A DNA stretch of 64,000 bases from Alopecurus myosuroides (taxonomy: Eukaryota > Streptophyta > Magnoliopsida > Poales > Poaceae). Shown here one piece after another: positions 23,801-55,958 of the stretch (its first letter is position 1; every line of letters begins with the position of its first letter). Where the stretch lies: assembly GCA_028641055.1 (NCBI GenBank), contig CM054060.1, positions 293,308,660-293,372,659 on the forward strand, written 5' to 3'. The notes below the pieces were generated by a model. The model did not search any database and was not told the origin of the DNA. It saw only the letters and a list, made by a program, of their open reading frames with translations. Made by a program: the position numbers and the translations under genes.

Positions 23801-26000
23801 GGAGTTGGGCGACGTGGACCACATGCGTGTTGATTGGAAGAAGGCGGACATGGGTTACAAACCCATGACTATCTCATCCAACTCCAGCACGCTCGCCACG
23901 CTCGCCGCCAAGATGTTCGTCCACCGCAAGGCTGCCGAGGACCTCGAGCAATCCTACGCGGTAAGTCTTACTCGCCCTTCCCGAGTTGCGTTTCACTTTT
24001 CTTCTACTCTTCTTATTTTCCTTATCCATCACCCAGTCCCCGAGATTCTGGCCGAGTAGACGGATACTCTCCCGAGTTGCCGCCTTCTCGGGTTGAATCT
24101 CTATCACTTTGCCTGACTCTTTTTTCTTTTGCTTCTCAGAATAGCTTATTGAAGCGGACCGGCCTGTACCGTCGGCTACTCTGGAACCATGCCATTGCTA
24201 GGAGACGCATTGACGCCCTGGAAAGAGAGCGTGCAGCCGACGAGGCAGCCGAGAAGGATGTTATGAACAGCACACTGAGACTTTCTGAAGTCGAAGGTAC
24301 GCTTTTAGCTATGCGGTTCTTGCGTTTGGTGTTTACGCCCGCTCTTGCTTTTTGTGCTAACCAATCCTATTCTGCAGGGAAGTTAAAGGCCTTGGCCGAC
24401 GAGCACGCGAACTGCCGTGCCTTTGTTGAGAATGGCCAAGCCACCATCAAGAGATTGGAAGGTATGACACCGTCCTTTCGGCTTGTCTTTGTGTTTCTTT
24501 CTTCACTACTCTGCTAACCGTGCTTTGCTCTTCTGAGAAGATCATAAAAAATTTGCCGAGGAACATCAAGACTGCCTCAAGCCTGCTGAGGTGCAGCAGC
24601 AATTGTCCAGCCAGGCTGTCGAGCTGATGAAAGAGCACACTACCGAGATGGAAGCTCTCCAACTCCAGCTGCAGACTGCGCTCCAGGACGCCCTCAACTT
24701 AGCAGCCGAGAAGAAGGATTTGCTTGCCGAGAAGGAGAAGAACGAAGCAGCAGCCAAAGCCAAGGAGAGAGCCCTCGAACAGGAGTGCGAGGTGCTGAAG
24801 AAAAGCAACGCTGCCCTCTTCGCTCAGCTGGACGGGCTCCGCTTGATTGAAGAGAAGCACCTAGCCGACGAGGAATCGTGGAAGAACCAGCTGCAAGGGC
24901 TGCGCTATGACTTGAACAGTAAGTGCTCTCTTTTCTTTGCTTCACTGCTACTCGTTTTGCTCCTCTGCTACTCGTTTCTTATTTCTTCTCTGTTTCTGTT
25001 TCTGATCTTCTCGATAGCTCTTGCAGGAGTCTTCCCCGACCTCGAGTCTTCTTGCGGGCCTGCCCTGGCGAAGGCCCGAGCAGCTCGCGCTGAGAAGGGC
25101 GAGCCTTTGGACACCAGAGCAGAAATCGAGGAGAGCATCCTGATCATGCAAGGGCAATTCCAGCGTCTAGCGGGCGTGGGCACCGAGCTGGTGCGCTTCG
25201 CCTTCGAGATCCACGACCTCTTCTGGCCTCAGGACTCCGCGCCAACGACAATCCGCGGGCTCGCCTTGAAATTGCGCAGCGTGAAGGCCGAGCTGAAGAA
25301 GTGGCGCGCATCGGGAGCTCGGGCAGGCGCGGACATGATGCTTCTATTCATCACCAGCTGGTACGAAAATCTCAACTTGCAAATTGTCCGCGAGATGCGC
25401 CAAGACTCCAAGTGGGAGAAGAACTCCGACTGCGTGGCTATCCGCAAGCTTGTCGCTCACGAGGTCGCCCAGTATGCTGACACTGCGACCTTCATTGACG
25501 GCCTCACCGAGCCCGACACCGAGGTGGACGAGGGCGAGGAGGAGGACGAAGATGAAGAGACGGACGAGGAGGAATTGGATCTAAGCTTCTTCGAGTCTCC
25601 TGGTGGCAAGGCCGGGAAGGGGAAGGCCGCTGTCGTCGCGGGTAGCGATGAGGAGGACGAGAGCGAGAAGATGTCGATTGACACCGCCGCGCTCGAGTTC
25701 GGCACCTCGTCAGGAGCTGCCCTCGACGACACGATTAGCCTTCGCGCCCAAGCCACTGGCTCCACTTCAGCGACAGTGCCCGTCTCGGTGGCCACGGCCA
25801 CTTCAGTCCAGGTAGCCACCGAGCCCGACGCCGAGCTAGCGCAGACCGTCCCCGGCAACTCGGAAGCGGATGGAACCAATGCCAGCGCCGAAAACGAAAC
25901 TGCGAAGACTGTTGACGCCAGCTCGGAAGCAGACGCGACCAAGGCCACTACTGAAGATGAAGCAGCCAAGGCCAGCACCGAGAACGTCGCCTCGACCTGA
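20805..26000 (+). pseudogene. Antisense eight-exon gene of element E (frame broken)
   Basis: Exons by GT/AG sites and homology to element F: 20805-21712, 22036-22219, 22308-22504, 22594-23960, 24140-24296, 24378-24461, 24538-24918, 25027-26000. Exon 1 has the EGEHVVFLAHFARGFGLP region and GIRPTTETWSRYFFFRQQ, resembling the plant 'putative gypsy type transposon' domain (Pfam Transposase_28). Exons 2-4 are acidic, then rich in K, A, E and P. Exons 5-8 form coiled coils (LEQECEVLKKSNAALFAQLD) and an acidic Ser/Ala tail. Relative to F, exon 1 lost one base near 21690. The frame also breaks in exon 4 between about 23410 and 23620. Exons 5, 6 and 7 and intron 7 have exactly the lengths seen in F (157, 84, 381 and 108). 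The exon 7 acceptor reads TGAG where F has GCAG. Function unknown. Confidence 0.8.
21785..21990 (+). repeat. 60-bp tandem repeat in intron 1 of the antisense gene (E)
   Basis: 'gtgtttgcacgcc' recurs at exactly 60-bp spacing (about 21844, 21904, 21964), with a weaker unit before. Element F has four units of 59-61 bp in the same intron. Confidence 0.85.
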
Positions 26001-30141: not shown

Positions 30142-30144
30142 CTA

Positions 30145-39810: not shown

Positions 39811-40698
39811 TGTCGGGGGGTTACCCCCGAGTAGGGTAAAGACAGGTGGTAAAGGCAGCTTACAGAAGAGAGGTTTGGTCGAGTAGCCGACTACCTGGTA
39901 CTCGCTACCCGGTCGACTGCTACTCGGTCTCACCTCAAGATGACCAGAAGGAGATATCAATCAAGTTCTATCCTTTCGAGTAGAAGGATTGGCCCGAGTA
40001 CAAATTGGCGGGAACCTACTCGGGCCAGAAAGTCAAAGGAGCCGTTCTGACACAGGATCCCGCGTATCCTGGGTCCGTACTTGGCAGCATTCGAACTACT
40101 GTTCATCTGGGACCGGCCTGCCTGACAGTGACAGCATGGAAGCAGGCCGTGGCAGGATAAGGGGGGCCTACTCTGTGCCTAGGTACAGTGATACCAGTCT
40201 GTCCCCTAGTTTTGCCCAACGACTTTACAGAAGCAGCCAAGGTTAGGAACCAAAGCTGTCAGCGGGTACTCGGAGAAAGGACGATGTGCACACTATGTCG
40301 ACACTTGTCTAGATTTGGACGTATCCGGCTGGGCGCCATGTATATAAGGTGCCCCGCCGCCTCCTGCGCGAGGCACGCTAACAGTTGCTCACTGGGAACC
40401 CTAGAAACCCTAAGTTCTTGACCTAGCTCTACTCGGAGAGGAGAGAGAAGCTACTCGGTAGCGATATCATTTGTACTGTGGCTACTCGGAGAGACATCAT
40501 AATACATAGAGAAAGGCAGGAGTAGGGGTTTTACCTCCTCACGAGGGCCCTGAACCTGGGTACATCGTGTTGTTTGTGTTGTGTGGATCTTACCTCACGC
40601 GGCTACTCGTCGCGTGATCCCTCCCCGGACACCTCCAGCGTCCATCGTCCCCACATCTTTAGCCATCCCATGGCATCTGCCGTGACACCACCACGACA
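39811..40698 (+). repeat. 5' LTR of element F (888 bp)
   Basis: TGTCGGGGGG...CCACGACA. It carries TACTCGG or CCGAGTA at least eight times (39827, 39921, 39994, 40017, 40267, 40430, 40452, 40483). The TATA box is at 40341, and the gag ATG (40670) lies inside its 3' end. Confidence 0.97.
40341..40348 (+). promoter_or_regulatory. TATA box of the F LTR promoter
   Basis: TATATAAG follows 'gggcgccatg' and precedes a GC-rich start region, about 330 bp before the gag ATG. The copy in the 3' LTR is identical. Confidence 0.75.
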
Positions 40699-43600
40699 GT
40701 TGGCGCCCACCGTGGGGCAACCAGCGGCGCTGGCTGGAGTTTCTGTTCGGACGGGATCTTCTTCGGCGGAGCGCGTAGTTTGTGGCCTTGTCCACAGATT
40801 CGGCTCCTTCGACTTCGTCACCGACAACGCCGGCTGTTTCGGCGGCATGGCCATGCCCGAGGGCGGCTCGGTGATCTCCTTCGGCTCGCATCTCGTCTAC
40901 GTCGCCACCGTCGCCAACAGCGCCTACCCCGAGCTGGTGCATGACGCGGAGGATCCTCCTGCGGTGGTTGCTGCTCGCGGAAGGCCTGCATGCAGCTCTG
41001 CATGCTGCGCTGAGGTGATGGTGACGGGTTTGGCGGCGAACACTGGCGCAGCTGCTACTGGCGCTGCGGCCGTCGTCGAGGAGGTTGACGACCCGCCTGC
41101 TGGTGGCAGGAATCACCGGCCCTACGAGAAGGAGAGCAACTTGCCACCTTCCACGTCTACGGTCATCCCCGCGTCTGCTGCGCGAACCGGCATGCCCACT
41201 CCCACCGACATCGAGCTCCTAGCCGCGAGGGAGCAGCTCGAGCGGCAACGCCAGGAACTGCTTGCCGAGCAGGCGGAGTTGGAGAAGATCAGGCTCGAGC
41301 TGAGTCTGGACCAGCTCGAGTACAACAAGGCTCACGGCTTCACGCCGGTCGCCAGGAGGCCCAGCAGAGTAGGCGCTACGCGGCGCAACTTGGGTGCCGA
41401 GATGGCGACAGTTGCGGAGGTGCCCGCGCAGTCCGCCACCGCGAACACCTTCACAAGGCCAAGGTACAGCACACCCGCCAAGACGCTCAGAGCTGCACAG
41501 GCCGTGGCTGCCGAGTTGCCGCGCCTGGATGGAGAGGCGCGTCTCAGGCAGCAGGAGAGGCTCAACGAGTTGGTGTTGGAGGCCGCTAGGCAGAACGAGG
41601 AGTTCCGGAAGGCCAACCCGGGAGCTGGAGCTTCGCAGGTGGTTCATTCGCACGCGGCTAGATCTAACGATCAGGCCTCGTCTCCGCATCCCAGCCGCGA
41701 GAAGAGCCGCAGCGGGCGTTCGGGTAGAGACAGGCAAATGCAGGTGTATGACCCGGCTGCTGCCGCGAAACAGGTTGCTGTGCCGCAGCAGCCCGGGCAG
41801 GAACACAACGCTGCAAGAGCAGGCTCTCAAGCCCATCAAGCTCAAAGCCGTGCCCGAGAAGCCGCGCGTCCGGGTACTTCTCGGCAACCCGCAGCTCAGC
41901 CTACTCGGCAGAGGCAGCAGCCGCGCCCGGTGGCACCAGTCGCCAACCCGGTGGAGCAGCCCGCAGCTATGCAGGTGGATAGGTATGATGATGGCTACTC
42001 GGCTATGGAGATGGCTGGTTATGACATTCATGACCGTGTTGGTGAGCGTGTGTTGGTGCCTGGAGATGCAAGGCACCAGCTGGACCGTATCAGCTTGTCG
42101 GCGCGGCTTGAGAGCACGGGTCCTCCTGGCCCCGAGTGCTTTGGCCCGCGCATCATGAACGAGCCTTCCGTGAAGGGTTTCCAGCGTGCAAGGGGCACCA
42201 AGAGTTACAATGGCAGCACCAAGCCCGAAGATTGGCTCAATGACTACGTCACCGCAGTCCACATTGCGGGCGGCAACAGGAGATGGGCAGTGCGGTACGT
42301 CCCGCAGATGCTAGAGGGTCCAGCTCGCACTTGGCTCAACAACTTGCCCAAGCACAGCATAAATTGCTGGCTGGATTTCTCGGACGCCTTCGTCAGCAAC
42401 TTCACCAGCACCTACAAGAGGCCGAATAGGCCACAGCAGCTGTCCGCTTGCAGGCAGCGAGAAGACGAGACAGACCGCGAGTACCTTACTCGGTGGAGCA
42501 CCTTGAGGAACACTTGTGAGGGTGTGAATGAGGCACAGGCCATCACTTGGTTTGCGCAGGGTTGCCGACATGGCAGCATGCTTTGGCAGAGATTGCAGAG
42601 GGAGATGCCGAACACCCTGGCCGAGACCATCAAGATTGCAGATCAGTACGCACTCGGTGATCCTACTCAGCCACTGATGGACTCCTCTGAGCCGAGAAGA
42701 AACTTCAACAGCAGCAAGCGCAACGAGTTCCGCAACAAGCGCCGAGTAGATACTCGGTATGACCCCGAGGAGGTGAATGCAGTGAATGTTGGAGGTGGTG
42801 GTGGCCAAAGGCAGAAACCTGCTGGAGCCTACGGGCAGAACCAGAATCAGGGCCAAGGCAACAAGAAGCCATTTCGCGCCTCTCAGTCGGGTAGCGGGAA
42901 CTCCGAGCAGCCGAAGAAGTTTGTCTTTGACGACATGAAGGATGGCCCGTGCAGCTTTCACACTCATCATCCTTCGAGGCCTGCGAACCATACTACTCGG
43001 CAATGCGAATGGTGGGATGTGATCAAGAGTGATGGCTTGCCTCCTCCTCCTCCCCTGCCAGCCGCCAATGCTACTGTTCAGCCTACTCGCGCACCCGCAG
43101 CTCGGCCGCCAGTGTACCCGAGAAGAGAGAATGTCAACCAGGTGGCTTTAGGAGCCAACCGGAACTTCAACAATGAGAGATACCGCAACAACAACAACAA
43201 CTACAACCGCAACAACAACAACAGAGGCAACAACAACTATCAAGGCAGCAACAATGGCAACAATGGCAACAATGGGGGCAATGGCTCCAACCAGTACCAA
43301 GAGCACCATGAGAGCTATATGATCTTCACTTCTGAGGCAGTCGACAAGCAGTCACAGCACAGGCGGACCATGGAGGTCAACGCAGTGATTCCTGCTGTCC
43401 CTCACTACATGTATTGGTGTGACCAGGAGATCAGGTGGACTCGGGCAGATCATCCCAAGGTGATGCCCAATCCGGGTACCTATGCCTTGGTGTTGGATCC
43501 CACCTTCCTGGGCCCCGAGAAGAATGTGAGGTTCAGCAAGGTGCTAATCGACAACGGCAGCAGCATCAACATTGTGTACAAGGACACACTCGAGAAGCTT

Positions 43601-44131
43601 GGCCTAGCCGAGAACATGATGCTGCCCAGCAAGACCACCTTCCATGGCATTGTGCCCGGGATCTCATGCAACCCGATTGGCCGAGTATGGATTGATGTGC
43701 TATTCGGTACCCGAGAGAACTGCCGCACAGAGCGCCTGCAGTTCGAAGTGGTGGATCATCAGAGCCCCTATCATGCTCTACTCGGCAGGCCTGCTCTGAG
43801 CAAGTTCATGGCCTCTACTCATGTGGCTTATCTGAAGATGCAGATCCCTGGCCCCAATGGCATCATCACCATCTCGGGAGATTACAAGAAGTCCATGGAG
43901 TGTGCCTCTGCTAGCTCCCAGCTGGCGGAATCAATGGTGATTGCTGCCGAGAAGAAGAAGATGTACGAGGTGGTGGCCATGGCTCAGTCCGCACAAGCTG
44001 GCGCACAAGGTGTGCCGAGTACCCAGCATGGTACTGCTTTCCAAGCTGCCAAGGAGACCAAGACAGTCCAGGTTGACCCCGAGTTCCCGGAGCGCGTGGC
44101 CATCATTGGTGCCGGGTTGGCGGAGAAATAG
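40670..44131 (+). CDS. gag: Gag-protease polyprotein of element F
   Basis: About 1153 codons from the first in-frame ATG (40670, 29 bp inside the LTR) to the UAG at 44129-44131. Order: a conserved N-terminal region (residues 1-110); a long coiled coil (REQLERQRQELLAEQAELEK, about 185-215); a disordered Arg/Ala/Gln-rich linker; the retrotransposon gag domain (about 505-665, WLNDYVTAVHIAGGNRRWAV); a CSFHTHHPS...QCEWW cluster that may replace a normal CCHC knuckle; an Asn-rich tract (about 835-875); and an aspartic protease with IDNGSSINIVY (about 960) and LLGRPALSKF (about 1038). Gag assembles the particle and the protease matures it. No stop or frameshift is present, in contrast to element E. 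The start codon lies in the LTR, so the same ATG is also present in the 3' LTR. Confidence 0.93.
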   Translation: MASAVTPPRQLAPTVGQPAALAGVSVRTGSSSAERVVCGLVHRFGSFDFVTDNAGCFGGMAMPEGGSVISFGSHLVYVATVANSAYPELVHDAEDPPAVVAARGRPACSSACCAEVMVTGLAANTGAAATGAAAVVEEVDDPPAGGRNHRPYEKESNLPPSTSTVIPASAARTGMPTPTDIELLAAREQLERQRQELLAEQAELEKIRLELSLDQLEYNKAHGFTPVARRPSRVGATRRNLGAEMATVAEVPAQSATANTFTRPRYSTPAKTLRAAQAVAAELPRLDGEARLRQQERLNELVLEAARQNEEFRKANPGAGASQVVHSHAARSNDQASSPHPSREKSRSGRSGRDRQMQVYDPAAAAKQVAVPQQPGQEHNAARAGSQAHQAQSRAREAARPGTSRQPAAQPTRQRQQPRPVAPVANPVEQPAAMQVDRYDDGYSAMEMAGYDIHDRVGERVLVPGDARHQLDRISLSARLESTGPPGPECFGPRIMNEPSVKGFQRARGTKSYNGSTKPEDWLNDYVTAVHIAGGNRRWAVRYVPQMLEGPARTWLNNLPKHSINCWLDFSDAFVSNFTSTYKRPNRPQQLSACRQREDETDREYLTRWSTLRNTCEGVNEAQAITWFAQGCRHGSMLWQRLQREMPNTLAETIKIADQYALGDPTQPLMDSSEPRRNFNSSKRNEFRNKRRVDTRYDPEEVNAVNVGGGGGQRQKPAGAYGQNQNQGQGNKKPFRASQSGSGNSEQPKKFVFDDMKDGPCSFHTHHPSRPANHTTRQCEWWDVIKSDGLPPPPPLPAANATVQPTRAPAARPPVYPRRENVNQVALGANRNFNNERYRNNNNNYNRNNNNRGNNNYQGSNNGNNGNNGGNGSNQYQEHHESYMIFTSEAVDKQSQHRRTMEVNAVIPAVPHYMYWCDQEIRWTRADHPKVMPNPGTYALVLDPTFLGPEKNVRFSKVLIDNGSSINIVYKDTLEKLGLAENMMLPSKTTFHGIVPGISCNPIGRVWIDVLFGTRENCRTERLQFEVVDHQSPYHALLGRPALSKFMASTHVAYLKMQIPGPNGIITISGDYKKSMECASASSQLAESMVIAAEKKKMYEVVAMAQSAQAGAQGVPSTQHGTAFQAAKETKTVQVDPEFPERVAIIGAGLAEK
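40700..40718 (+). other. Primer binding site of element F
   Basis: TTGGCGCCCACCGTGGGGC lies one base after the LTR end. It falls inside the gag reading frame and encodes LAPTVGQ. Confidence 0.82.
44129..44131 (+). promoter_or_regulatory. In-frame UAG between protease and RT (candidate readthrough site)
   Basis: The context GCGGAGAAATAGGAA is identical in element E (30142-30144, minus). The frame stays open on both sides in F. Readthrough is inferred from conservation and not seen directly. Confidence 0.6.
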
Positions 44132-47100
44132 GAAAGCGCGCTCATCCACTTCCTCCGTGAGAATCGGGATGTGTTCGCCTGGACCAATGAAGATCTACCA
44201 GGAGTCCCGAGGGAGTTGGTTGAGCACTCTTTGCATGTGCGTCCTGACGCCAAGCCCGTGAAGCAGGCTTTGCGCCGTTTCGGAGATGAGAGAAGGAAGG
44301 CCATCGGTGATCAGATCACAAAGCTGCTGATAAGTAACTTCATCATGGAAGTGCTGCATCCGGATTGGTTAGCCAACCCGGTCATGGTCGAGAAGAAAAA
44401 GGAAGATCCCAAGGCTGCCACTGCATGGCGCATGTGTGTCGACTACACCGACTTGAACAAGGCATGCCCCAAGGATCCATTCCCGCTACCTCGCATCGAT
44501 CAGGTGATCGATTCCACTGCCGGCTGTGAACTGTTGTCTTTCATAGATGCCTACTCTGGTTTCCACCAGATTGCACTCAACCCTGCTGATCAAATAAAGA
44601 CTGCTTTCATTACCCCGTACGGGGCTTATTGCTATCGTGTCATGTGTTTTGGCTTGAGGAATGCGGGTGCAACCTATCAGAGATGCATGCAGAATTGCTT
44701 GCACGACCAGCTCGGCAAGAATGTGCAGGTGTACGTAGATGACATTGTCATCAAAACGAATAAAACACATACTCTGCTTGCCGACCTGGAGGAAACCTTT
44801 GCTAACCTACGCAAGTACAAAATGAAACTGAATCCGAGTAAGTGCATCTTTGGTGTACCAGCTGGAAAGCTACTCGGTTTTCTGGTTTCTAGTCGGGGCA
44901 TTGAAGCCAATCCTTCTAAGATAAAAGCTATTGAGAGCATGTCTTTACCGAGATCACTGAAAGATGTGCAGAAGTTCACGGGTTGTCTGGCATCTTTGAG
45001 CCGTTTTCTGGGCCGAATGGGCGAGAAGGCTCTGCCTCTGTACCAGCTAATGAAGAAAAGTGACAAGTTTGTCTGGACTCCGCAAGCGGACGTGGCATTC
45101 AATGAGCTGAAAGCAATGCTGGCTAGCGCTCCCGTCTTAGCTAGTCCGCTACCCAAGGAGCCTATGCTGCTGTACATTGCTGCGACTAACCGAGTAGTCA
45201 GCGTGGTGATAGTGGTGGAGCGAGAAGAAGAAGGCAAGAGTGTGCAGCGCCCAGTCTATTATCTCAGTGAAGTGCTGTCCAGTTCCAAGCAAAACTATCC
45301 GCACTACCAGAAGATGACATATGGTGTGTACCTGGGCACCAGGAAGCTGAAACATTACTTCCAGGAGCACCCCATCACTGTTGTGAGCTCTGCTCCCATC
45401 TCGGATATCATGGGTAACAAGGAGGCGAGTGGCAGAGTAGCCAAGTGGGCGATTGAGCTGGCCGCGTACGCTCCCGCGTACGCGAGAAGAGAAGCAATCA
45501 AGTCTCAGGTCCTGGCAGAGTTTCTTGTAGACTGGGCCGAGATGCAGTACGAACCTCCTGCTCCAGTTTCCAATTATTGGAAGATGCATTTCGATGGCTC
45601 GAAAGTGAAAGAAGGCCTTGGTGCTGGCGTTGTGCTTACATCACCCAAGCGGGATCAACTCAAATACGTGCTGCAGATTCATTTCAAGGCATCCAACAAT
45701 GTAGCCGAGTACGAGGCAGTGGTGCATGGTTTGAGAGTAGCAAAGGAGGTTGGTGTGCAGCGCATTATATGCTATGGTGATTCAGATCTAGTGGTGCAGC
45801 AGGTCTCAGGTACCTGGGATGCTTTGGATGCCAACATGGCATCGTATCGCTTCCTGGTGCAGTCAATGACTGGGTTTTTCGAAGGCTGTGAGTTCCAGCA
45901 CATTCACCGAGCAGAGAACGAAGCGGCAGACGAGCTATCCAAGTTGGGATCTTCTCGGCAGTCCATCCCGGCAGGGATTGCCTTGGAGCATTTGAGGAAG
46001 CCATCCATCAAGCCTTCCCCCAACTCGGAATCCATCTTTGTTCCTTCTCTGCCAAGTGAAGAATCTGACCCAATGGAGATTGACTGGGAGAGTGCTGCAG
46101 GGAACCCGGGGACTGCCGTCCTCTACTCGGGGACTGCCACTCCTTACTCGGGGACTGCCGTTCCCTACTCGGGGACTGCCATTCCCTACTCGGGGACTGC
46201 GACTCCTTACTCGGGGACTGCCACTCCGTACTCGGGGACTGCCGCCCTCAACCCAGAAGCTGTTGCATTCATTGAAGAGGTTCTTGCCAATCGGTCTGGG
46301 CTGCAAAGAAGCGCTCCTACTCCTCCTGTGCAACCGCCAGAGCCTGTCCCAATGGAAATGGACGAACCAGTGTTTCCCGTGCGGGAGACACCGAGTTGGG
46401 CAATGCCCATATTATCCTTTCTAAGGGACGGTACCTTACCTGAAGATGAGGTGACTGCGAGGCAGATTCAGAGAAGGTCCAAGGGCTACACTATAGTCCG
46501 AGATGTGCTGCACAAGAGAAGTGCCACTGGTGTGCTGCAACGTTGTGTGAGCCCAGAAGAGGGAGAAGAAATCCTGGTGGAGATACATCAAGGGGAATGT
46601 GGGCATCACGCCTCATCTCGGGCTTTGGTCAAGAAAGCTTTTCGGCATGGCTTCTACTGGCTCACTGCACTGCAGCAAGCTGAAGATATTGTGAGGAAGT
46701 GCAACGGCTGCCAGATGTTCGCAAGTAAGATTCACATGCCTGCTTCCGAGTTGAAAACAATTCCTATCACATGGCCATTTGCTGTTTGGTGCTTGGATAT
46801 GGTTGGTCCTTTCAAGCCGGCTAAAGGCAATATGACACATATCTTGGTCATGGTGGACAAGTTCACCAAGTGGATCGAGGTGAAACCTATTCGGAAGTGC
46901 GATGGGGTCACAGCTGTGAAGTTTGTGAAGGATGTGATTATGAGATATGGCTACCCGCACAGTATCATCACCGACAACGGCACCAACTTTGCAGAGGGGG
47001 CAATGGTGCGATTCTGCAGAGATAAGCATATCCGACTAGACGTTGCGTCAGTCGCGCACCCTGCCTCCAATGGGCAAGTTGAGAGAGCCAACGGAATGGT

Positions 47101-47662
47101 ACTGGCAGGCATCAAGCCAAGGCTGATTGAGCCATTGCTGAAAACACCTGGGTGTTGGCTAGAAGAGTTGCCAGCGGTGTTGTGGAGTCTAAGGACTACC
47201 CCTAACCGGTCAACCGGCTACACGCCATTCTTCTTGGTATACGGGGCTGAGGCCGTGTTGCCAATAGACTTAGAGCATGACTCCCCCCGAGTAGCCCTCT
47301 ACACTGAGGTGGAGGCGAGAGAAGCTCGAGAAGACGACGTTGACCTGCTTGAAGAAGCAAGAGAGCTGACTCTGTCACGTTCGGCTATCTACCAGCAAAA
47401 CCTGCGGCGCTATCATAGCCGAAAGGTGAACCCAAGGGTTTTCCGAGAAGGAGACATGGTCCTTAGGCTTGTGCAGCGCACATCCGGGATGCACAAGTTG
47501 TCTCCTCCTTGGGAAGGGCCTTTCATTGTGAGCAAAGCGCTGCACAATGATGCGTACTACCTTGTAGATGTGCGCCCGTCGCAGGCGAACAGGGCAGATA
47601 AAGCTGGAGAGGAAACCAAGCGTCCTTGGAATGTAGCTCTACTTCGTCGTTTTCATTCGTGA
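44132..47662 (+). CDS. pol: Pol of element F: RT, RNase H, second RNase H, integrase
   Basis: In the same frame as gag-protease but after the UAG at 44129-44131; about 1176 codons. RT (about 75-260) has CVDYTDLNKACPKD and YVDD at residues 201-204. The Ty3-type RNase H follows to about 425. A second, archaeal-like RNase H (about 485-610: FDGSKVKEGLGAG, AEYEAVV, GDSDLVVQQ, NEAADELSKL) marks the Tat lineage. A linker with seven GTAxPYS repeats spans about 655-710. Integrase has an HHCC finger (HQGECGHH...CNGCQMF), the catalytic triad in LDMVGPF, ITDNGTNF and NGQVERAN, and a C-terminal DNA-binding region. There is no ATG near the start, so synthesis most likely depends on UAG readthrough. It converges on the antisense gene 671 bp downstream. 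Confidence 0.94.
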   Translation, partial: ESALIHFLRENRDVFAWTNEDLPGVPRELVEHSLHVRPDAKPVKQALRRFGDERRKAIGDQITKLLISNFIMEVLHPDWLANPVMVEKKKEDPKAATAWRMCVDYTDLNKACPKDPFPLPRIDQVIDSTAGCELLSFIDAYSGFHQIALNPADQIKTAFITPYGAYCYRVMCFGLRNAGATYQRCMQNCLHDQLGKNVQVYVDDIVIKTNKTHTLLADLEETFANLRKYKMKLNPSKCIFGVPAGKLLGFLVSSRGIEANPSKIKAIESMSLPRSLKDVQKFTGCLASLSRFLGRMGEKALPLYQLMKKSDKFVWTPQADVAFNELKAMLASAPVLASPLPKEPMLLYIAATNRVVSVVIVVEREEEGKSVQRPVYYLSEVLSSSKQNYPHYQKMTYGVYLGTRKLKHYFQEHPITVVSSAPISDIMGNKEASGRVAKWAIELAAYAPAYARREAIKSQVLAEFLVDWAEMQYEPPAPVSNYWKMHFDGSKVKEGLGAGVVLTSPKRDQLKYVLQIHFKASNNVAEYEAVVHGLRVAKEVGVQRIICYGDSDLVVQQVSGTWDALDANMASYRFLVQSMTGFFEGCEFQHIHRAENEAADELSKLGSSRQSIPAGIALEHLRKPSIKPSPNSESIFVPSLPSEESDPMEIDWESAAGNPGTAVLYSGTATPYSGTAVPYSGTAIPYSGTATPYSGTATPYSGTAALNPEAVAFIEEVLANRSGLQRSAPTPPVQPPEPVPMEMDEPVFPVRETPSWAMPILSFLRDGTLPEDEVTARQIQRRSKGYTIVRDVLHKRSATGVLQRCVSPEEGEEILVEIHQGECGHHASSRALVKKAFRHGFYWLTALQQAEDIVRKCNGCQMFASKIHMPASELKTIPITWPFAVWCLDMVGPFKPAKGNMTHILVMVDKFTKWIEVKPIRKCDGVTAVKFVKDVIMRYGYPHSIITDNGTNFAEGAMVRFCRDKHIRLDVASVAHPASNGQVERANGMVLAGIKPRLIEPLLKTPGCWLEELPAVLWSLRTTPNRSTGYTPFFLVYGAEAVLPIDLEHDSPRVALYTEVEAREAREDDVDLLEEARELTLSRSAIYQQNLRRYHSRKVNPRVFREGDMVLRLVQRTSGMHKLSPPWEGPFIVSKALHNDAYYLVDVRPSQANRADKAGEETKRPWNVALLRRFHS
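46105..46251 (+). repeat. Seven 21-bp repeats in the pol linker of element F
   Basis: Units start at 46105, 46126, 46147, 46168, 46189, 46210 and 46231 with consensus CTCGGGGACTGCCNYTCCYTA. They encode GTAxPYS. Element E has six units. The core TCGGGGACTGC equals the PPT core at 54249-54259. Confidence 0.95.
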
Positions 47663-48333
47663 GCAAAGATGTGTATGTACCCTCTTATCCGAGTTGAAAT
47701 TCTACTCTGCAATCTGAAATTGTTCTCGGGGACTGCCCTCGTCCAAAATTGCTCTAAGTGTTTTTACTCGGCTTGACCCTTTGTCTACTCGGTTGCTCCA
47801 CTTCAGAACTCATAAGTGCATTGAGTAGTGTGTTTAAACCTATATGCCAACTCTTCGACTCTGCTGCTGTCCGAAACCCGGCTTCATGGCAAGCAAGAGA
47901 ACAAGCAAAAGGTCAATGAGCACACGAAAATCGCTAAGGAAGAAAGAGTGCAGGAGCCGAGTAGATTGTTTGTTACTTTCGTTCCCTGTTTTCGTCTTCT
48001 CGGCTAAGTGGTGGGCTGCGTTACCATGATTGTTTCTAGCGGCTAAGTATTTGCAGCCCTACTACTTGATTCTTGTGACTCGAATACCAAAAAAGCGACA
48101 AGTCGCGGGTAGAGCAGAGATGAAAAGATAGGGTGAATAAGAAATGCAACTCGGGGACTCGCATGGAAGCGCAACTCGGCATTAAGCCAGCGTCGTTCAA
48201 ATTGATTAATGTTGAAATAAACAGAGTGGGCATAAAAACTGAGTAGCAAGCAAAACAAAGATAGTCTATTACATCTGCTCCCGGCATCCCGGGGATCTGA
48301 TAAGTTTTCGAGTAAAAGAGAGTGCAGGTTGCT
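47663..48333. other. Convergent intergenic spacer of element F
   Basis: Lies between the pol stop and the antisense gene stop. It has no frame. It contains another TCGGGGACTGCC at about 47726-47737. It is homologous to 26001-26652 of element E in reverse. Confidence 0.6.
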
Positions 48334-51300
48334 TCAAGATGAGTAGGCAGTGTTCTCGGCGCTGGCCTTGGCTGCTGTTTCTTCGGCGGCGGTCTTGGCA
48401 GCGGCTTCTTCGGTGGCGGTCGTGGCAGCTGTTCCTTCGGTGCTGGCATGGGTGGCATCCGCTCCCGTCTGGACGGTGGCGGATTCCTTCATCTCGGCAT
48501 CATCCTGGGTGGCCGCCTGCTCAGAAGTGGCCGTGGCCACCGAGACGGGTCCTGGAGCCGAAGAGGAGCCTGAAGCCTGGCCAGGAGGGGGCACCGTGTC
48601 GTCGAGAGCAGCACCTGAGGAGGTGCCGAAGTCGAGTGCGGCGGTGTCGATGTGGGCGTACTCGTCCTCATCGCTACTCGCGACGGCGACGTTCTTCCCC
48701 TTCCCGGCCTTGCCCTCAGGAGATTCGAAGAAGCCTTCCAAGTCGGATTCCACTTCGTCCTCCTCTCCCTCTTCCTCTTCGTACTCGGTGTCGGGCTCGG
48801 GGAGGCCATCGATGAAGGTCTCCGTCTCAGCGCACTCCGCCACCTCGTAGGCGATCTGCTTGCGTGTGGCCACGCAGTCGGGATCTACCTCCCACCTGGA
48901 ATTGTTGCGCTTCCCGCGGATGAGCTGCATGTTGAGGTTTTCATACCAGGATGCTATGCAGAGAAGCATCACGTCTGCACCAGCACGGGCGCCCGAGGCA
49001 CGCCACTTCTTCAACTCCTTCTTCACATTCTTCAGCTTGAAGGCTAGGCCCTTCATGGTTGTTGGCCGATCATCATGAGGCCAAAACAGCCTGTGGAGCT
49101 CAAAGCCCTCGTGCACCAGGTCAGTTCCGACGCCAGCCAGCTGTTCGAAATAGCTGTTGAGCACCAGCAAGCTGTCCTCGATCTCGGCTCTGGTATCTGC
49201 TGCCTCACCTTTCGCAAGGCGAGCTGCTTTGGCCTTGGCCACCATAGGCACAGAAGGGGAATCAAGATGAGGCCAGATCTCTGAAATAGCATGTGGTAAC
49301 TTCAGAACCGAGAAGAGAACAACCGAGTAGAGGAAAACCGAGGAGAAATACGACCGAGAAGAAAAGAAGCAGCAAAGAAAAGACTTACCGGGCAGTTCGT
49401 TGCGCAGCCGCTGCAACTGGGTCTTCCAGGACTCTTCGTTGGCTATGTGCTTTTCTTGGATCAGGCGCAAGCTATCCATCTGAGCGAAGAGATCAGCATT
49501 GGTCTTCTTCAAAGTTTCGCATTCTTGCTCAAGGGCCCTTTCCTTGGCTCTGAAAGTGGTCTCGGCCTTGGCCTTCTCGGCGTTGGCTCTGTCCCTCTCG
49601 GCGCCAATCTTGACGGCATCCTGGAGTGCCTTTTGCAACTGGAGTTGCAGCTTCTCGGTCTCCGTGGTGTGGTCCTTCAACAGCTCAACGGCCTGGTCGG
49701 ACAGCTGCTTCTGCACCTCCGCTGGCTTGACACAATCTTGGTGTGCCTCAGCAAACAACTTGTGATCTTCTGCGAAGAGATAGAAAAGGTTAGCAGAGGA
49801 GCAAAGAAGAAACAAATTCAAAGTCAAACCGAGTAAACAACAAACTTACCTTCTAGCCTTTTGATGGTGGCCTCGGAGTTCTCCACGAAGCTGCGGCACT
49901 TCTCATGTTCGTCTGCTAAGGCCTTCAGTTTCTCTGCAGAGAAGGAAAGGTTAGCGCAATAGAAAGCATAAGCGAGCGTAAACAAAAAACGCATAAATCG
50001 CACAGCTAAAAGTGTACCTTGCAATTCAGCCAGCTGCTGGGTGCTGTCGTTAGCGTTCTTGCTGGCTGCCTCCGCAGCTGCCTTTTCCTTCTCTAAAGCA
50101 GCAATTCGCCTCCTGGCGATGGAGTGGTTCCAGAGAAGATGGCGGTACAGGTTGGTCCGCTTCAGGACGCTATCCTGAGAAGCGAGAAGAAGCAAGTTAG
50201 AAAAAGCAGAGTAGATTCGATCCGAGTAGGAGGCTACTCGGAGAGTATCCACCTACTCGGCTAGAATCTCGGGGACTGGGAGTGATAGAAAGGAGCAGAA
50301 AGGCGAATAGAAGAAAAGATAAGGAAAACTCACTGCGTAGGACTGCTCGATGTCCTCGGCATTCTTGCGGTGCAGGAACATCTTGGCTGCGAGTGTCGCG
50401 GTCTCGGTGGAGACGGACATGGGATTGCGTCCCAGGTCAACCTTGTTCCAGTCCACGCGCATGTGGTCGATGCCGCCAAGGCTAAGACCGTGCCACTTCT
50501 CCACGCCGAGAACCTTGCTATCCCATTTGGCGTCGATGAAGCCAATGGTGTCCAGTACCTGCTCAAGGCCTTTTGAGGTTATTGGTTTGTCTTGGACTCC
50601 ACGAGAAGCGATGTTGACAGACTGGGGTTGGCTTGGATCTGGAGGAGGGGAGTTCATGGCTACAACCTTCCTTCCCCTCTGGATAGCTAAAGCTTTGTCC
50701 TTGGGAGGGAAGCCGATTGAGTGCTGATGGCTAACCTCAATCATGTACTCCGGGTAGCAAGGCTGGCCAGCAGCGCGAGCATCGGCTGAGAGCGCGGCGG
50801 GAATCGGGCCAGACTCATGGATCACGAGTGCTCCACCTGAGGCTGGTAGCGGCACTTGGTCTCTGGACCGCTTCTTCGTCTTTTCCTTCTCGGGATCCTG
50901 AGTTTTCTTCCCGTCAGCTTTGGCCTTCGCCTTCTCGGCCGCTTCCTTCTCGGCCTTGGCTCTCTCAGCAGCTTCCTTCTCAGCCTTGGCCTTCTCGGCG
51001 GCTTCCTCCTCGGCCTTGGCCTTCTCAGCAGCTTCCTTCTCGGCTGCCCTTCTGTCAACCTCACCCCTCAGAGCATCCAGGGCTCGTTGCCTGGTTACTC
51101 GCCCGGCAGGAGGGCTGGATGTATCCTTGGTCTTCGGCGGCGAGGAGGAGGTTGGCGGTGTAGGGCCTTGCGCAGTTGGTGGTGTAGGGCCTTGCGCAGT
51201 TGGTGGTGTAGGGCCTTGCGCAGTTGGTGGTGTAGGGCCTTGCGCAGTTGGTGGTGTAGGGCCTTGCGCAGTTTGTGATGCCGCAGATCCGTCGCCCGCT

Positions 51301-53568
51301 GCAGCTCCCGGCTGGGCGCTACTTGGTGCGCCACCCGGCTTCACGCTGCTCAATGGATAGGCATCTCTCTTGGTGGCGTCCGTGGCGGTGGTGTCTTCTG
51401 CTCGCTGCTCGGCAGCGAGATTCTCTTGTGCAGCAGCCCCTGTGGTGGGCTGCTCTTGCTCTGCTTCAGGCCGCTCAGCGGCGGTGTTGTCTTGCATCAC
51501 TTGATCTTGGTTCTCCTCGGCATTGCTAGCCGGAGGAGAAGGGGGTCTCTCATCGTGGATGGTAGTGTCCTGTGCTGCTGGTTCAGACGCTGCTCCTTGC
51601 GCACCGGCGGTCTGTGGATTGGCAGCAGCAGCGTTGGCGGTGTCGTCCTCATCATCATCCAGGTTGACCAGAGGTACTGGTTTTTCCTTAGTGTGATCAG
51701 ACGCGAGAGCTGCGTTCGCGTCCATAGGAGGTCTGCAGAGAAAGGGAAACCAGAAATTAGAAGGAATTTGGGGAAAATAGTACCGCGCGAGAAGGGAAAC
51801 GACCGAGAAGAGGGCTTACGCGGTGGTGCATTTGAGCTCTCGTCTGGATCTCTTCACGACCACTTTCTTCTCGGCGGGTTTCTTCCGCTTGGCAGGAGGC
51901 GCTGGAGCTCCGCTACCAGCCCGTTTGCGGGTCTCAGGAGCGGCGACGGACAGAGGCTTGACGACTAGGGGCGCATCGCCCTCGTTCTCGTCCTCGTCCT
52001 CATCGTCCTTTTCCGCGGCAACTTCATCTGAGAATCCAAGAGAAAAGAGGAAAGAATCAGAAACAGCACACGAGGGGTTGGTGCTTCTCGGAAGCAAACA
52101 GAATGGAAGTATAGTTACCGTCAAAGTCTTCATCAGACCAGGTGCGGAGAGCGTCGCGCTTGTCAGTAGTGGGGGAGCGAGAAAGGTTGGTCTGCTCCGC
52201 GGCATCGAAAGAGGGCACATCATCCTCCTCACGATCAGGAGACCAGTTGCCCTCAAAAACTTCGCAGCTCTCGATTATCTGGCGAGTGAGAACCTGAAAA
52301 ACAGAGAAGGATCACAGGCTAGCCGAGTACCAGGAAGGAATTCTACTCGGATAGGCGTGCAGGTACAAAGCACACAAAGCCTAGGCAGTTTACTAAGCAT
52401 TCTACCCGGATAGGCGTGCAAACACAAAGCATACTAAGCCTAAGCATGTTTGCCGAAAGGTATTACTCGGAAGGGCGTGCAGGCATAAAGTACATCAAGC
52501 CTAAGAATCGTTCTCGAGTAGGCTATCCGGCAAGGCGTGCAAACACAAAGCATACTAAGCCTAAGGCGATTCGGCTAGATGTCCTACTCGGAACGCAAGG
52601 CAATTGCTAGTTGATGCAAGAAGGAGAAGTTATCTACTCGGAAAGTGTATGCAGAGAGCAAAGTAAGAAAGGCGTACCCGCTCAATTGGCTTTGTACGGC
52701 TGTACGGGACGAGCCCGTATTGCCAGTGGTCGCCAAGGCTTGTCGTCAAGATGTTCCTTGCGTGCCAGGGGACATCGATGTTGTCAATCTCGATGGTGGT
52801 TGTCCTGGTGCAGTCGCGGGGCCCTCCCATGTAACACATGAGATGGCAGCGTTCCTGCAAGGGCAGCACTCGGCGCTGGATCCAGCAAGCCACCGGATCG
52901 TCGTTCTTGAGGCCCTGCGCCTTCAGCCAGCCGAGTCTATTCTCCATCTCGATGGCGTCATCGTCATTGACGGGCTTGTCCTTCCAGTACATCCCGATTG
53001 GAGCGCGATTGCTCCAAACGGGCAAGTTGATTCGATCGTTCACCGGGGCTCCTTCCGCGGCGGCAACGTTCCTGACGTAGAGGAACGTCTTCTGCCATAG
53101 CTTGACGGAGTCCAGCCCCTTGATGCGGGGGTGGTTCGTCCCGGACCGCTGCACCATCATGGCGCAGCCGGTGTCGGTAGCGCGGGCGACGCCCGCGGAG
53201 TCCTTCTTCCCGGTAGATTGCTGGCGCAGGTGGAAATACCTGAGCCACGTCTCCCACGTGGGCCGGATGCCGAGGAAGGCCTCGCAGACCACGGCGTGGT
53301 AGGCGAGGAAGACGACGGCGTTGGGGGGCAGATGGTGCATCTGGATGCCGAAGTGGTTGAGGAACTTCCGCAAGAAATCGGAGGCGGGCAATCCGAACCC
53401 GCGCTCGAAATGCGCCAGGAAGACGACGCGCTCTCCCTCCCGCGGGGACGGCACGATTTCACCGTCCGGCGCCCGGCACTCCACGCCGGGAGGGACTCGC
53501 CTGGTATTGACGAGCCAGGCGCAATCTTCTGCGGTGACGGAGGAGCCGGCCCAGCCAGATTTGGCCAT
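48334..53568 (-). CDS. Antisense eight-exon gene of element F, open over 1413 codons
   Basis: Exons on the minus strand: 53568-52678, 52293-52119, 52027-51820, 51732-50334, 50174-50018, 49933-49850, 49769-49389, 49280-48334. All introns are GT...AG. The exon sum is 4242 nt, exactly 1414 triplets, and every junction keeps the frame. Exon 1 encodes a domain like the grass 'putative gypsy type transposon' family (GLPASDFLRKFLNHFGIQMH; FLGIRPTWETWLRYFHLRQQ). Exons 2-3 are acidic, then basic. Exon 4 has a disordered Pro/Ala part, PTPPTAQG repeats, a K/A/E helix and a conserved block (GLEQVLDTIGFIDAKWDSKV). Exons 5-7 are coiled coil. Exon 8 ends in an acidic Ala/Thr-rich tail. Its own TATA box lies about 166 bp upstream. 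The gene is antisense to gag-pol and lies between pol and the 3' LTR, like the antisense ORFs reported for Tat elements such as Grande. Its function is unknown. Expression and splicing are inferred from sequence only. Confidence 0.82.
51151..51270 (-). repeat. Five 24-bp repeats in exon 4 of the antisense gene (F)
   Basis: 'gttggtggtgtagggccttg' plus CGCA recurs five times at exact 24-bp spacing. It encodes the peptide repeat PTPPTAQG. I do not see the repeat in element E. Confidence 0.95.
52350..52590 (-). repeat. Approx. 60-bp tandem repeat in intron 1 of the antisense gene (F)
   Basis: 'ggcgtgcaaacacaaagcat' or close variants start at about 52352, 52411, 52472 and 52531. It is the reverse-strand counterpart of the 60-bp repeat in element E. 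Confidence 0.85.
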
Positions 53569-53733
53569 TGTCGCGAGTACGGAAGGTGGAAGAAATCGAA
53601 GGAGTTGGTTGGGGGATTGAGCCCGCGGCGGCGCGAGAGCTTGCGCGGCGGCGGAGAGCTCGGTGGCGGAGAAGAGCAGGAGACGAAGAAGGAATAGTGC
53701 GAGGGAAGGGGAAAAGGAAGTTACCGACGGGGG

Positions 53734-53741
53734 TATTTATA
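53734..53741 (-). promoter_or_regulatory. TATA box of the antisense gene in element F
   Basis: The minus strand reads TATAAATACCCCC, about 166 bp before the ATG at 53568. Identical to E at 20634. The surrounding promoter DNA is also alignable between the two elements. Confidence 0.75.
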
Positions 53742-54246
53742 TCTCCTCCGCGAGTTTACCGTTACCGTCGTGGGAGTGGGATCGATTGTGGCGTGTGGTG
53801 GATCCTGTGGCCGGCTAGAAACGCACACAAGCGCCGGTTGCGCGCGTAATGGCCACAGTTGATCCCACCACCGAATCGTGGCCTATAACTACACTTGATG
53901 GGACATGACGGCCGGTGGGCCCACCGCGTGAAAACTGGACGCGTGGCGGGTCGTGTCCTGGGCAACGAAACGACAAGGTCGTGGATGCTTGACACGTGTG
54001 CAGTTGCTGCGCGAAGGGCTGGATTGTGCTCTGTGCTGCAGAGGCTAAATCTGAGAAATTTCTCTAAGTCTTTTTACTCGGTTACAGAGTAGAAAGCAAG
54101 TGCTACTCGGTAGAGAGGAAACTCAAGGTACTTTCCAGATAGCTACTCGGAGGTTCTACTCGGCATCTTGAGGTTCAAGGGCTGAGATGCAAAGGCTGGT
54201 TTTAAGCTGGCAGAGCCTAGTGAACAAGTTCACAAGACTCAACCAG
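53742..54246. other. Upstream region of the antisense gene, between its promoter and the PPT
   Basis: About 500 bases without a frame. 53760-54000 aligns with 20600-20380 of element E, including the blocks CCAGTTTTCACG and GTGGGCCCACC, so it may hold promoter elements. CTACTCGG occurs repeatedly at 54070-54170. Confidence 0.6.
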
Positions 54247-54259
54247 CTTCGGGGACTGC
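54247..54259 (+). other. Polypurine tract of element F
   Basis: CTTCGGGGACTGC abuts the 3' LTR start TGTCGGGG at 54260. The equivalent in E is CTTCGGGGACTAA. Confidence 0.75.
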
Positions 54260-55160
54260 TGTCGGGGGGTTACCCCCGAGTAGGGTAAAGACAGGTGGTA
54301 AAGGCAGCTTACAGAAGAGAGGTTTGGTCGAGTAGCCGACTACCTGGTACTCGCTACCCGGTCGACTGCTACTCGGTCTCACCTCAAGATGACCAGAAGG
54401 AGATATCAATCAAGTTCTATCCTTTCGAGTAGAAGGATTGGCCCGAGTACAAATTGGCGGGAACAATTGGCGGGAACCTACTCGGGCCAGAAAGTCAAAG
54501 GAGCCGTTCTGACACAGGATCCCGCGTATCCTGGGTCCGTACTTGGCAGCATTCGAACTACTGTTCATCTGGGACCGGCCTGCCTGACAGTGACAGCATG
54601 GAAGCAGGCCGTGGCAGGATAAGGGGGGCCTACTCTGTGCCTAGGTACAGTGATACCAGTCTGTCCCCTAGTTTTGCCCAACGACTTTACAGAAGCAGCC
54701 AAGGTTAGGAACCAAAGCTGTCAGCGGGTACTCGGAGAAAGGACGATGTGCACACTATGTCGACACTTGTCTAGATTTGGACGTATCCGGCTGGGCGCCA
54801 TGTATATAAGGTGCCCCGCCGCCTCCTGCGCGAGGCACGCTAACAGTTGCTCACTGGGAACCCTAGAAACCCTAAGTTCTTGACCTAGCTCTACTCGGAG
54901 AGGAGAGAGAAGCTACTCGGTAGCGATATCATTTGTACTGTGGCTACTCGGAGAGACATCATAATACATAGAGAAAGGCAGGAGTAGGGGTTTTACCTCC
55001 TCACGAGGGCCCTGAACCTGGGTACATCGTGTTGTTTGTGTTGTGTGGATCTTATCTCACGCGGCTACTCGTCGCGTGATCCCTCCCCGGACACCTCCAG
55101 CGTCCATCGTCCCCACATCTTTAGCCATCCCATGGCATCTGCCGTGACACCACCACGACA
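54260..55160 (+). repeat. 3' LTR of element F (901 bp)
   Basis: Identical to the 5' LTR except for C to T in 'cttatctcac' (about 55052) and a 13-bp tandem duplication of AATTGGCGGGAAC near 54454-54479. Confidence 0.97.
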
Positions 55161-55165
55161 GAGTC
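55161..55165. repeat. Target site duplication of element F (right)
   Basis: GAGTC matches 39806-39810. The uninterrupted site is seen at 35540-35544 in the first copy of B. Confidence 0.95.
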
Positions 55166-55958
55166 TCATATTTTTTTTTCAAATCCTGATACATCTTTGT
55201 CTCTCCAGGATGAACGGTGTAGGGAGTCCGGTGTGCCTCTCTGAGAATGTCCTCCTTCACCAGAGACTTTTGTGGCACACAAATACGGCCATGAAACCGG
55301 ACAGCTCCGGTCTCATCTATAGTAAATTCTCCAGTTCTACCTTCAAGGACGCGCTCTCGGACTCGCTGTAAGAGTCTATCACTTTGCTGCGCCTCTCTCA
55401 CTCTATCCGGGATAGCTGACTGAAGGATGAATTGTGTCTCGTCATGTGCTACACCAGCAAAACAATATGATATTCCCATCCTTTCAAAACCAGCAACAAG
55501 ACAATCGACAGTAGGAGGTACAGACTTGCGTCTAAGAGCATCTACAACCACATTCGCCCTGCCTGGGTTCTATTTGATAGTGAGGTCATAGTCCTTTATC
55601 AATTCCAGCCACCGTCGTTGCCTCAAGTTCAACTCCTTCTGTGTGAAGAGGTATTTTAAACTCTTATGGTTAGTGAAAATATCACAAGATTCTCCATAAA
55701 GATAATGCCTCCAAAGCTTGAGTGCAAAGACCACCGCCGCAAGCTCTAGATCATGAGTAGGATAGTTCTGCTCGTGCTTTTTCAATTGCCTAGAAGCATA
55801 AGCAATAACCTTCCCATCTTGCATGAGAACACAACCAAGTCCAACTAGGGAAGCATCAGAGTAGACTGTAAAGCGCTTCCCGGGCTCAAGAAGAGTTAGA
55901 ATAGGAGCAGTCACTAGACTATTCTTGAGAGTGGAGAAGCTATGCTCACTTTCATCGG
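55166..55958 (-). pseudogene. pol: Second copy of the inverted pol fragment of element B (partial)
   Basis: Aligns with 35546-36341 at roughly 98%. Minus strand: RNase H ([26 protein letters not shown]) and the integrase start (VHPGETKMYQDLKKKY). It shares the TAG after YDLTIK (55571-55569) with the first copy, so the fragment was already dead before duplication. It is cut at 55958 by element C. The rest would lie beyond the window. Confidence 0.85.

What the first reader, a model, noticed from the sequence alone, without database searches (positions are those of the whole stretch)
48334..53568. An intact eight-exon antisense gene inside a young retrotransposon
The minus strand of element F holds eight exons with canonical GT/AG sites whose lengths sum to 4242 nt. 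Every junction phase agrees and there is no stop. A 1413-residue protein with a gypsy-transposon-type N-terminal domain and a long coiled coil can thus be produced from the strand opposite to gag-pol. Antisense ORFs are known in Tat-lineage elements, but a complete multi-intron gene with this domain order is unusual and its role is unknown. It could regulate gag-pol by antisense transcription, or act as a structural or targeting protein.
Basis: partly seen in the sequence, partly recalled or inferred. Interest (0 to 1): 0.88.

Follow-up and report, generated by a model that had tools for sequence, protein, structure and literature searches.

The report
Spliced antisense gene in grass retrotransposon
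A young retrotransposon of black-grass carries, on the strand opposite to its replication genes, an eight-exon protein gene that selection has kept intact in many copies; antisense genes of this family are known, but I found no description of their being split by conserved introns.

Summary
The minus strand of 48334-53568 has eight exons joined by seven GT/AG introns, 4242 nt, no internal stop, 1413 residues. The host is a young Retand-type LTR retrotransposon (39811-55160) of Alopecurus myosuroides: seven contigs sum exactly to the published pseudomolecules. The gene is neither chance nor relic. All seven introns recur at matching places in a second family in the window, and splice sites of four recur in a third family at 41% protein identity. 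Among 28 other, best-scoring copies 20 frames are fully open. dN/dS is 0.18 in 21 open copies, 0.19 in all 29. A TATA box (TATAAATACCC) 173 nt before the ATG is unchanged in 29 of 29 copies. Antisense Transposase_28 ORFs in Retand elements are already published (PMC11963269), as separate ORFs, introns not mentioned. New here: one spliced gene with its own promoter-like element and a conserved C-terminal domain. Most likely it makes a nuclear accessory protein. Expression and molecular role were not testable.

The parts
52678..53568 (-). exon 1 (891 nt); N-terminal domain with Pfam Transposase_28 at residues 48-115
   Evidence: dN/dS 0.09
52119..52293 (-). exon 2 (175 nt)
51820..52027 (-). exon 3 (208 nt); basic clusters at residues 401-406 and 414-418 (nuclear-signal-like)
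50334..51732 (-). exon 4 (1399 nt); low-complexity region with in-frame 24-bp and 30-bp tandem repeats
50018..50174 (-). exon 5 (157 nt); start of the helical, coiled-coil-like part
49850..49933 (-). exon 6 (84 nt)
49389..49769 (-). exon 7 (381 nt)
48334..49280 (-). exon 8 (947 nt) with stop; conserved C-terminal domain (about residues 1134-1260) and acidic tail
53731..53741 (-). TATA box TATAAATACCC, first base 173 nt before the ATG
   Evidence: unchanged in 29 of 29 copies; second family has TATAAA 171 nt before its ATG
53800..54258 (-). strongly conserved block next to the 3' LTR, upstream of the gene
   Evidence: p-distance 0.016 against 0.053 in introns
39811..40698 (+). 5' LTR of the host element
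54260..55160 (+). 3' LTR of the host element; target duplication GAGTC at 39806-39810 and 55161-55165
40526..44131 (+). gag open frame (stop to stop, so its start is not fixed), ends in TAG
   Evidence: Retrotrans_gag
44132..47662 (+). pol open frame: RT, RNase H, second RNase H, integrase
20805..26000 (+). homologous antisense gene of the second element (19220-34477, opposite orientation); 8 exons and 7 introns at matching places, this copy not fully open

Best explanation
This is a spliced accessory gene of a Retand-type LTR retrotransposon, read from the strand opposite to gag-pol. SHOWN from sequence: eight exons with seven introns, intron places conserved in a second family and partly in a third; protein-level purifying selection; an invariant TATA box outside the LTR; a two-domain protein (Transposase_28 N-terminus, conserved C-terminal domain) shared with Lolium and Festuca gene models. 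INFERRED: RNA polymerase II transcribes it from its own promoter, the introns are spliced out, and the protein enters the nucleus by its basic clusters. INFERRED logic of the introns: in the full-length sense RNA that is reverse-transcribed, the splice signals are reversed and cannot be used, so introns pass unharmed through every round of transposition; a sense gene would tend to lose them. INFERRED role: a nucleic-acid-binding, coiled-coil-like factor that favours its own element, most likely by keeping it transcribed against silencing or by helping the nuclear steps of the cycle. I put the spliced coding gene at about 0.93, a nuclear accessory protein at about 0.65, and anti-silencing or transcriptional control specifically at about 0.35.
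For: Exact exon chain; one open frame per exon, in all eight the demanded one. Across 29 copies GT at 199 of 203 donors and AG at 197 of 203 acceptors. 20 of 28 other copies fully open. dN/dS 0.181 (95% codon bootstrap 0.150-0.217) in 21 open copies, 0.194 in all 29; 1.4-1.8 in four of the other five frames of the same exon DNA and 0.24 in the fifth, a reverse frame with 17 stops in the window copy, whose low value I ascribe to shared third positions. Indels in the 21 open copies: 13 of 15 distinct exon gaps and 2 of 11 intron gaps are multiples of three. Second family: seven of seven introns at matching places with GT/AG; dN/dS 0.10-0.39 in exons 1, 5, 7 and 8. Third family: intron 1 donor, introns 4 and 7 on both sides and the intron 6 acceptor at the same place and phase. 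TATAAATACCC 29 of 29. C-terminal domain in 23 of 39 Lolium/Festuca proteins that were found with the whole protein. Published precedent: Grande gene23 has its own promoter and a nuclear product (PMC7264820). Clusters lacking GAG, or RH and INT, still have TRP28 in PMC11963269 Table 1, which fits a need in cis.
Against: No RNA or protein data were available. Only the 29 best of 10,766 first-look candidates were scored, which favours intact copies; 8 of the 28 others are broken. The exon gap count was made in copies chosen for open frames, so it is partly built in; the broken copies add nine frame-shifting gaps (1 in L017, 2 in L035, 6 in L036). Constraint is weaker than on a pol piece in the same nine copies (0.163 against 0.023) and is slight in places (residues 601-700 0.46, 1301-1400 0.41; the last 13 residues 3.9 on too few sites). 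A 2019 survey found Transposase_28 in only 23% of Retand elements (PMC6317226). No solved structure matches the predicted N-terminal domain (model pLDDT 62.7), so nucleic-acid binding rests on a published predictor (PMC11963269). Introns 5 and 7 can be retained without a stop. Two very divergent Transposase_28 loci lack a detectable C-terminal domain.
Confidence: 0.85

Rival explanations
1. The antisense transcript, not the protein, does the work: it pairs with the sense RNA, makes double-stranded RNA and limits copy number; the open frame is incidental.
For: Antisense transcription with dsRNA control is proposed for such elements (PMC7264820). The block next to the 3' LTR, upstream of the gene, is the most conserved stretch measured (p 0.016).
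Against: A regulatory RNA does not need a reading frame, yet dN/dS is 0.18, or 0.19 with the broken copies. Spliced RNA would pair with the genomic RNA only in pieces. It can coexist with a protein function.
Confidence: 0.06
2. The frame is open only because the copies are young: a captured gene carried as a passenger.
For: The LTRs of the window copy are nearly identical, and the copies examined were the best scoring.
Against: Copies differ at about 10% of synonymous but 2% of nonsynonymous sites; two families with exons 62-72% identical keep intron places and, in the exons compared, dN/dS of 0.10-0.39.
Confidence: 0.03
3. The region is transcribed but the real products are several shorter proteins, each from its own ORF, as drawn in published maps; the eight-exon joining is partly wrong.
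For: PMC11963269 predicts separate antisense ORFs with ORF Finder; introns 5 and 7 may be retained without a stop.
Against: Splice sites recur in three families, and exons 2, 3, 5 and 6 (84-208 nt) hold the frame though too short for separate ORFs. N- and C-terminal domains lie in one gene model in 23 of 39 Lolium/Festuca proteins.
Confidence: 0.06

Closest known systems
Antisense TRP28 (Pfam PF04195) ORFs of Retand-lineage elements (Vicient 2025, PMC11963269; parts 1-3 of 5 read)
   Same: Same place (between pol and 3' LTR), same strand, same N-terminal domain, same kind of host element; the same species is in that survey.
   Different: Described there as ORFs of at least 600 bp (shorter ones if they hold TRP28); the word intron does not occur in the main text. 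Splicing, promoter, C-terminal domain and selection are not reported in the parts I read. This family's internal region (13,561 bp) and POL-3'LTR region (6,597 bp) exceed the largest in its Table 1; its LTRs (888/901 bp) do not.
Grande gene23 of maize (from the review PMC7264820, parts 1-2 of 3 read; the 2013 original is not held)
   Same: Antisense accessory gene in the long 3' internal region, transcribed from a promoter upstream of it, nuclear product.
   Different: Sequence relation and exon structure not compared here.
Ogre elements (PMC6317226, passages only)
   Same: Tat clade, second RNase H between RH and integrase, extra ORF, a known intron.
   Different: The Ogre intron lies in the sense strand between gag-prot and RT, and its extra ORF carries the plant mobile domain in 57% of elements.
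Antisense retroviral genes such as HTLV-1 HBZ (named in PMC11963269; details partly recalled)
   Same: Nuclear regulatory protein from the minus strand of a retroelement.
   Different: No sequence relation shown; the HTLV antisense promoter lies in the 3' LTR (PMC7264820), here the TATA box lies inside the internal region.

Membership tests
Retand lineage (Tat clade, Ty3/gypsy) | second (archaeal-type) RNase H between RNase H and integrase | tested here: met
   RVT_1 92-250, RT_RNaseH 341-446, RVT_3 487-604, rve 882-977 of the pol frame; rule, shared with Ogre, from PMC6317226; that RVT_3 is that domain is recalled
Retand lineage (Tat clade, Ty3/gypsy) | antisense ORF with Transposase_28 between pol and 3' LTR | tested here: met
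   feature from PMC11963269
Retand lineage (Tat clade, Ty3/gypsy) | 5-bp target site duplication (usual for plant LTR elements), TG...CA LTRs | tested here: met
   GAGTC on both sides
Retand lineage (Tat clade, Ty3/gypsy) | sizes within the published range | tested here: inconclusive
   LTR 888/901 bp inside 315-1,194; internal 13,561 and POL-3'LTR 6,597 bp slightly above the published maxima (12,869 and 6,556-6,566)
Retand lineage (Tat clade, Ty3/gypsy) | RT groups with Retand in a tree | not tested
   no reference RT set was built
Transposase_28 (PF04195) family | match above the curated cut-off | tested here: met
   66.7 bits against 26.2
Grande gene23-like antisense accessory genes | own promoter upstream of the gene | tested here: inconclusive
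   TATAAATACCC in 29 of 29 copies, no transcription data
Grande gene23-like antisense accessory genes | nuclear localisation | not testable with these tools
   only basic clusters at 401-406, 414-418, 709-715
Ogre | two sense ORFs separated by an intron-like region of 274 bp on average before RT | tested here: not met
   gag and pol frames meet at a single TAG, 44129-44131; feature from PMC6317226

The most novel reading that the evidence does not exclude
The antisense TRP28 genes of Retand elements descend from one complete gene, with its own promoter and introns, that was captured in reverse orientation; being antisense is what let a retrotransposon keep spliceosomal introns through endless rounds of reverse transcription, and the product is a nuclear factor that protects or activates its own element.
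Probability: 0.35. Interest if true: 0.8.

Novelty: new variant of a known kind. Interest (0 to 1): 0.6.

Why it matters
A December 2025 review states that plant LTR retrotransposons generally lack introns, with Ogre and EVADE among the exceptions (PMC12786077, passages), and a 2019 survey asks whether these extra ORFs have any function (PMC6317226, passages). Here one extra ORF is a seven-intron gene under clear selection, in a genome where a loose first look gave 57,073 candidate places for its domain (150 scored). If general, published maps that draw several antisense ORFs may show exons of one gene; the long pol-3'LTR region of Retand elements is explained; introns argue for capture of a cellular gene rather than descent from an unknown virus; and spliced antisense reads become a simple marker of element activity. 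It also gives a defined protein for asking how such elements became so abundant in grass genomes.

Tried and rejected
Considered and rejected: chance open frame; decayed or passenger gene; antisense RNA alone.

Mended on re-check: the TATA motif invariant in 29 of 29 copies is TATAAATACCC (L026 differs two bases further on); the 5' LTR ends at 40698; the third-family evidence for intron 1 is its donor only; exons 2-4 were not in the comparison.
Full report
WHAT WAS CLAIMED AND WHAT IS THERE. The finding says that 48334-53568, minus strand, holds eight exons with canonical splice sites, 4242 nt, without a stop. I rebuilt it and obtained the same figures: exons of 891, 175, 208, 1399, 157, 84, 381 and 947 nt, seven introns of 384, 91, 87, 159, 84, 80 and 108 nt, all GT...AG, 1413 residues plus stop. 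Exons are richer in G+C (0.52-0.63) than introns (0.38-0.48). Each exon is open in exactly one of three frames, and for all eight exons that frame is the one dictated by the splice phases. The two wrong frames of the spliced sequence contain 36 and 64 stops, and 0 of 500 shuffles were open.

THE ELEMENT AND THE SPECIES. The element runs from 39811 to 55160, with LTRs of 888 and 901 bp that differ by one mismatch and one gap and a perfect 5-bp duplication GAGTC on both sides. Its sense strand has a gag frame (40526-44131, stop to stop) and a pol frame (44132-47662) with RT, RNase H, a second RNase H and integrase in that order. By the published rule this order marks the Ogre and Retand parts of the Tat clade (PMC6317226, passages), and antisense Transposase_28 marks Retand (PMC11963269). 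I built no RT tree. The seven large contigs of the held genome add up to 3,400,051,202 bases (contig lengths, summed by hand), exactly the pseudomolecule total of the black-grass genome, Alopecurus myosuroides, in Table 1 of PMC10108218 (passages); the whole held assembly is about 5 Mb smaller than the published total (3,566,735,433 against 3,572,044,634).

IS IT A GENE? Four lines say yes. (1) Copies. The own genome gave 28 other places of more than 3 kb at 91-95% DNA identity among the 29 scored of 10,766 first-look candidates. In these 28, 20 have the whole eight-exon frame open, one of them (L021) with two gaps that cancel; 8 are broken. Over 29 copies, GT stands at 199 of 203 donors and AG at 197 of 203 acceptors. 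(2) Selection. In the 21 open copies pN is 0.0195 and pS 0.1017, dN/dS 0.181 (95% codon bootstrap 0.150-0.217); with the broken copies added it is 0.194. Exon 1 has 0.09, exon 4 0.25, exon 8 0.25; constraint is slight at residues 601-700 (0.46) and 1301-1400 (0.41), and the last 13 residues give 3.9 on very few sites. Of the five wrong frames, four give 1.4-1.8; the fifth, a reverse frame with 17 stops in the window copy, gives 0.24, which I take to reflect shared third positions. Gap lengths are multiples of three in 13 of 15 distinct exon gaps and 2 of 11 intron gaps; this was counted in the open copies, so it is partly built in, and three broken copies add nine frame-shifting exon gaps. As a yardstick, a 1.2-kb piece of pol (RT to RNase H) from eight copies plus the window gives 0.023, the antisense gene in the same copies 0.163, its exon 1 0.089: constrained, but less than pol. 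(3) A second family. The element at 19220-34477, in the opposite orientation (ends and TATAA duplication), carries the homologous gene at 20805-26000 on the plus strand; all seven introns lie at matching places with GT/AG, although exons are only 62-72% identical. dN/dS is 0.24, 0.19, 0.10 and 0.39 in exons 1, 5, 7 and 8; exon 6 is saturated, and exons 2-4 were not compared. (4) A third family. Locus L051, 41% identical in exon 1 and 35% in the C-terminal domain, has the intron 1 donor, both sides of introns 4 and 7 and the intron 6 acceptor at the same residue and phase. That copy is decayed; introns 2, 3 and 5 are at best plausible there.

PROMOTER. TATAAATACCC, starting at 53741 on the minus strand, is unchanged in 29 of 29 copies; the second family has TATAAA 171 nt before its ATG, the first 173. 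The 459 bp next to the 3' LTR (54258-53800) are the most conserved stretch measured (p-distance 0.016, against 0.053 in introns and 0.070 at third positions); 53799-53569, which hold the box, are at 0.042. The conserved block could be promoter, a signal for the sense RNA, or both.

THE PROTEIN. Transposase_28 at residues 48-115 lies in a larger conserved N-terminal domain (exon 1) that matches 39 of 39 proteins found with the whole protein, all Lolium or Festuca; 23 of these 39 also match the exon 8 domain (residues about 1134-1260, 29-41% identity). So gene models of two other genera join the same two ends. Between them lie a charged and low-complexity region with in-frame tandem repeats, basic clusters at 401-406, 414-418 and 709-715, and a Pro/Gly-poor stretch at 891-1100 with a modest heptad signal (z 2.0). 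No solved fold resembles the N-terminal model.

HOW IT PROBABLY WORKS. Shown: structure, conservation, constraint, promoter element. Inferred: transcription by its own promoter, splicing, nuclear entry, action on the element. The orientation explains the introns: in the sense RNA that serves as template for reverse transcription the splice signals lie reversed, so the introns are copied faithfully. That selection maintains the frame in so many copies suggests that the product favours the copy that makes it; in the published survey, clusters without GAG, or without RH and INT, still have the domain (PMC11963269 Table 1), which fits. Of the possible roles I prefer protection from silencing or control of transcription, by analogy with Vandal accessory proteins (mentioned in PMC11728184, passages) and with the regulatory role suggested in PMC11963269; this step is a guess at about 0.35.

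WHAT IS KNOWN AND WHAT IS NEW. Antisense Transposase_28 ORFs are published as a hallmark of Retand elements (97% of clusters, PMC11963269; but 23% of Retand elements in PMC6317226), and Grande gene23 has its own promoter and a nuclear product (PMC7264820). 'Putative gypsy type transposon' (PF04195) heads both tables of shared Pfam domains on circular DNA of black-grass, 416 and 361 circles (PMC10606437, one section and passages), and that genome had an LTR burst about 0.1 Ma ago (PMC10108218, passages). The authors of the 2020 review asked that antisense and spliced transcripts be looked for. In the listings of eight searches and the passages read I saw no report of introns in such a gene, but two key originals are not held. 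New here, as far as I could see: the split structure with places conserved between families, the selection test, the invariant TATA box and the second conserved domain.

LIMITS. The copies are the best-scoring ones, so the open fraction is not a genome-wide rate. Introns 5 and 7 may be retained without a stop in 16 and 20 of 21 open copies, so the mature protein may come in isoforms. Two very divergent Transposase_28 loci lacked a detectable C-terminal domain. No RNA, protein or functional data were available.

Noticed in passing
window 44129-44131: gag and pol are in one frame separated by a single TAG (context AAATAGGAA); the same TAG stands in the second element (reverse strand near 30142). 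Possible stop-codon readthrough.
   Followed up: partly
G000 C1:541.7-543.7 Mb: Eight of the 150 scored Transposase_28 matches, and five of the top seven, lie within 2 Mb: a local cluster. One member, fetched as L038, is only about 28% identical to exon 1 here.
   Followed up: partly
window 53800-54258: Block just inside the 3' LTR about three times more conserved between copies than introns (p 0.016 against 0.053).
   Followed up: partly
window 52294-52677 (intron 1): About two thirds of intron 1 (52343-52593) is a diverged repeat of about 60 bp.
   Followed up: no
window 50922-51044 and 51151-51277: In-frame tandem repeats of 30 and 24 bp in exon 4.
   Followed up: no
window 46107-46243: 21-bp tandem array (7-residue repeat) inside the pol frame between the second RNase H and integrase.
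   Followed up: no
window 19220-34477 against 39811-55160: Between the two elements dS is 0.7-2.0 in antisense exons 1, 5, 7 and 8 but 0.52 in pol, whereas within the family pS is lower in the antisense gene than in the pol piece (0.106 against 0.137): the antisense module may have an older or separate history (module exchange), or a different mutation rate.
   Followed up: no
window 18222-55959: Both elements sit inside two long copies of an outer repeat (18222-36338 and 37894-55959 without the inserts, 96-99% alike), that is nested insertions.
   Followed up: partly
PMC10606437 tables 2 and 3: PF04195 heads the lists of shared Pfam domains on black-grass circular DNA; it may reflect activity of these elements, or that this gene escapes repeat masking while RT does not.
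   Followed up: no
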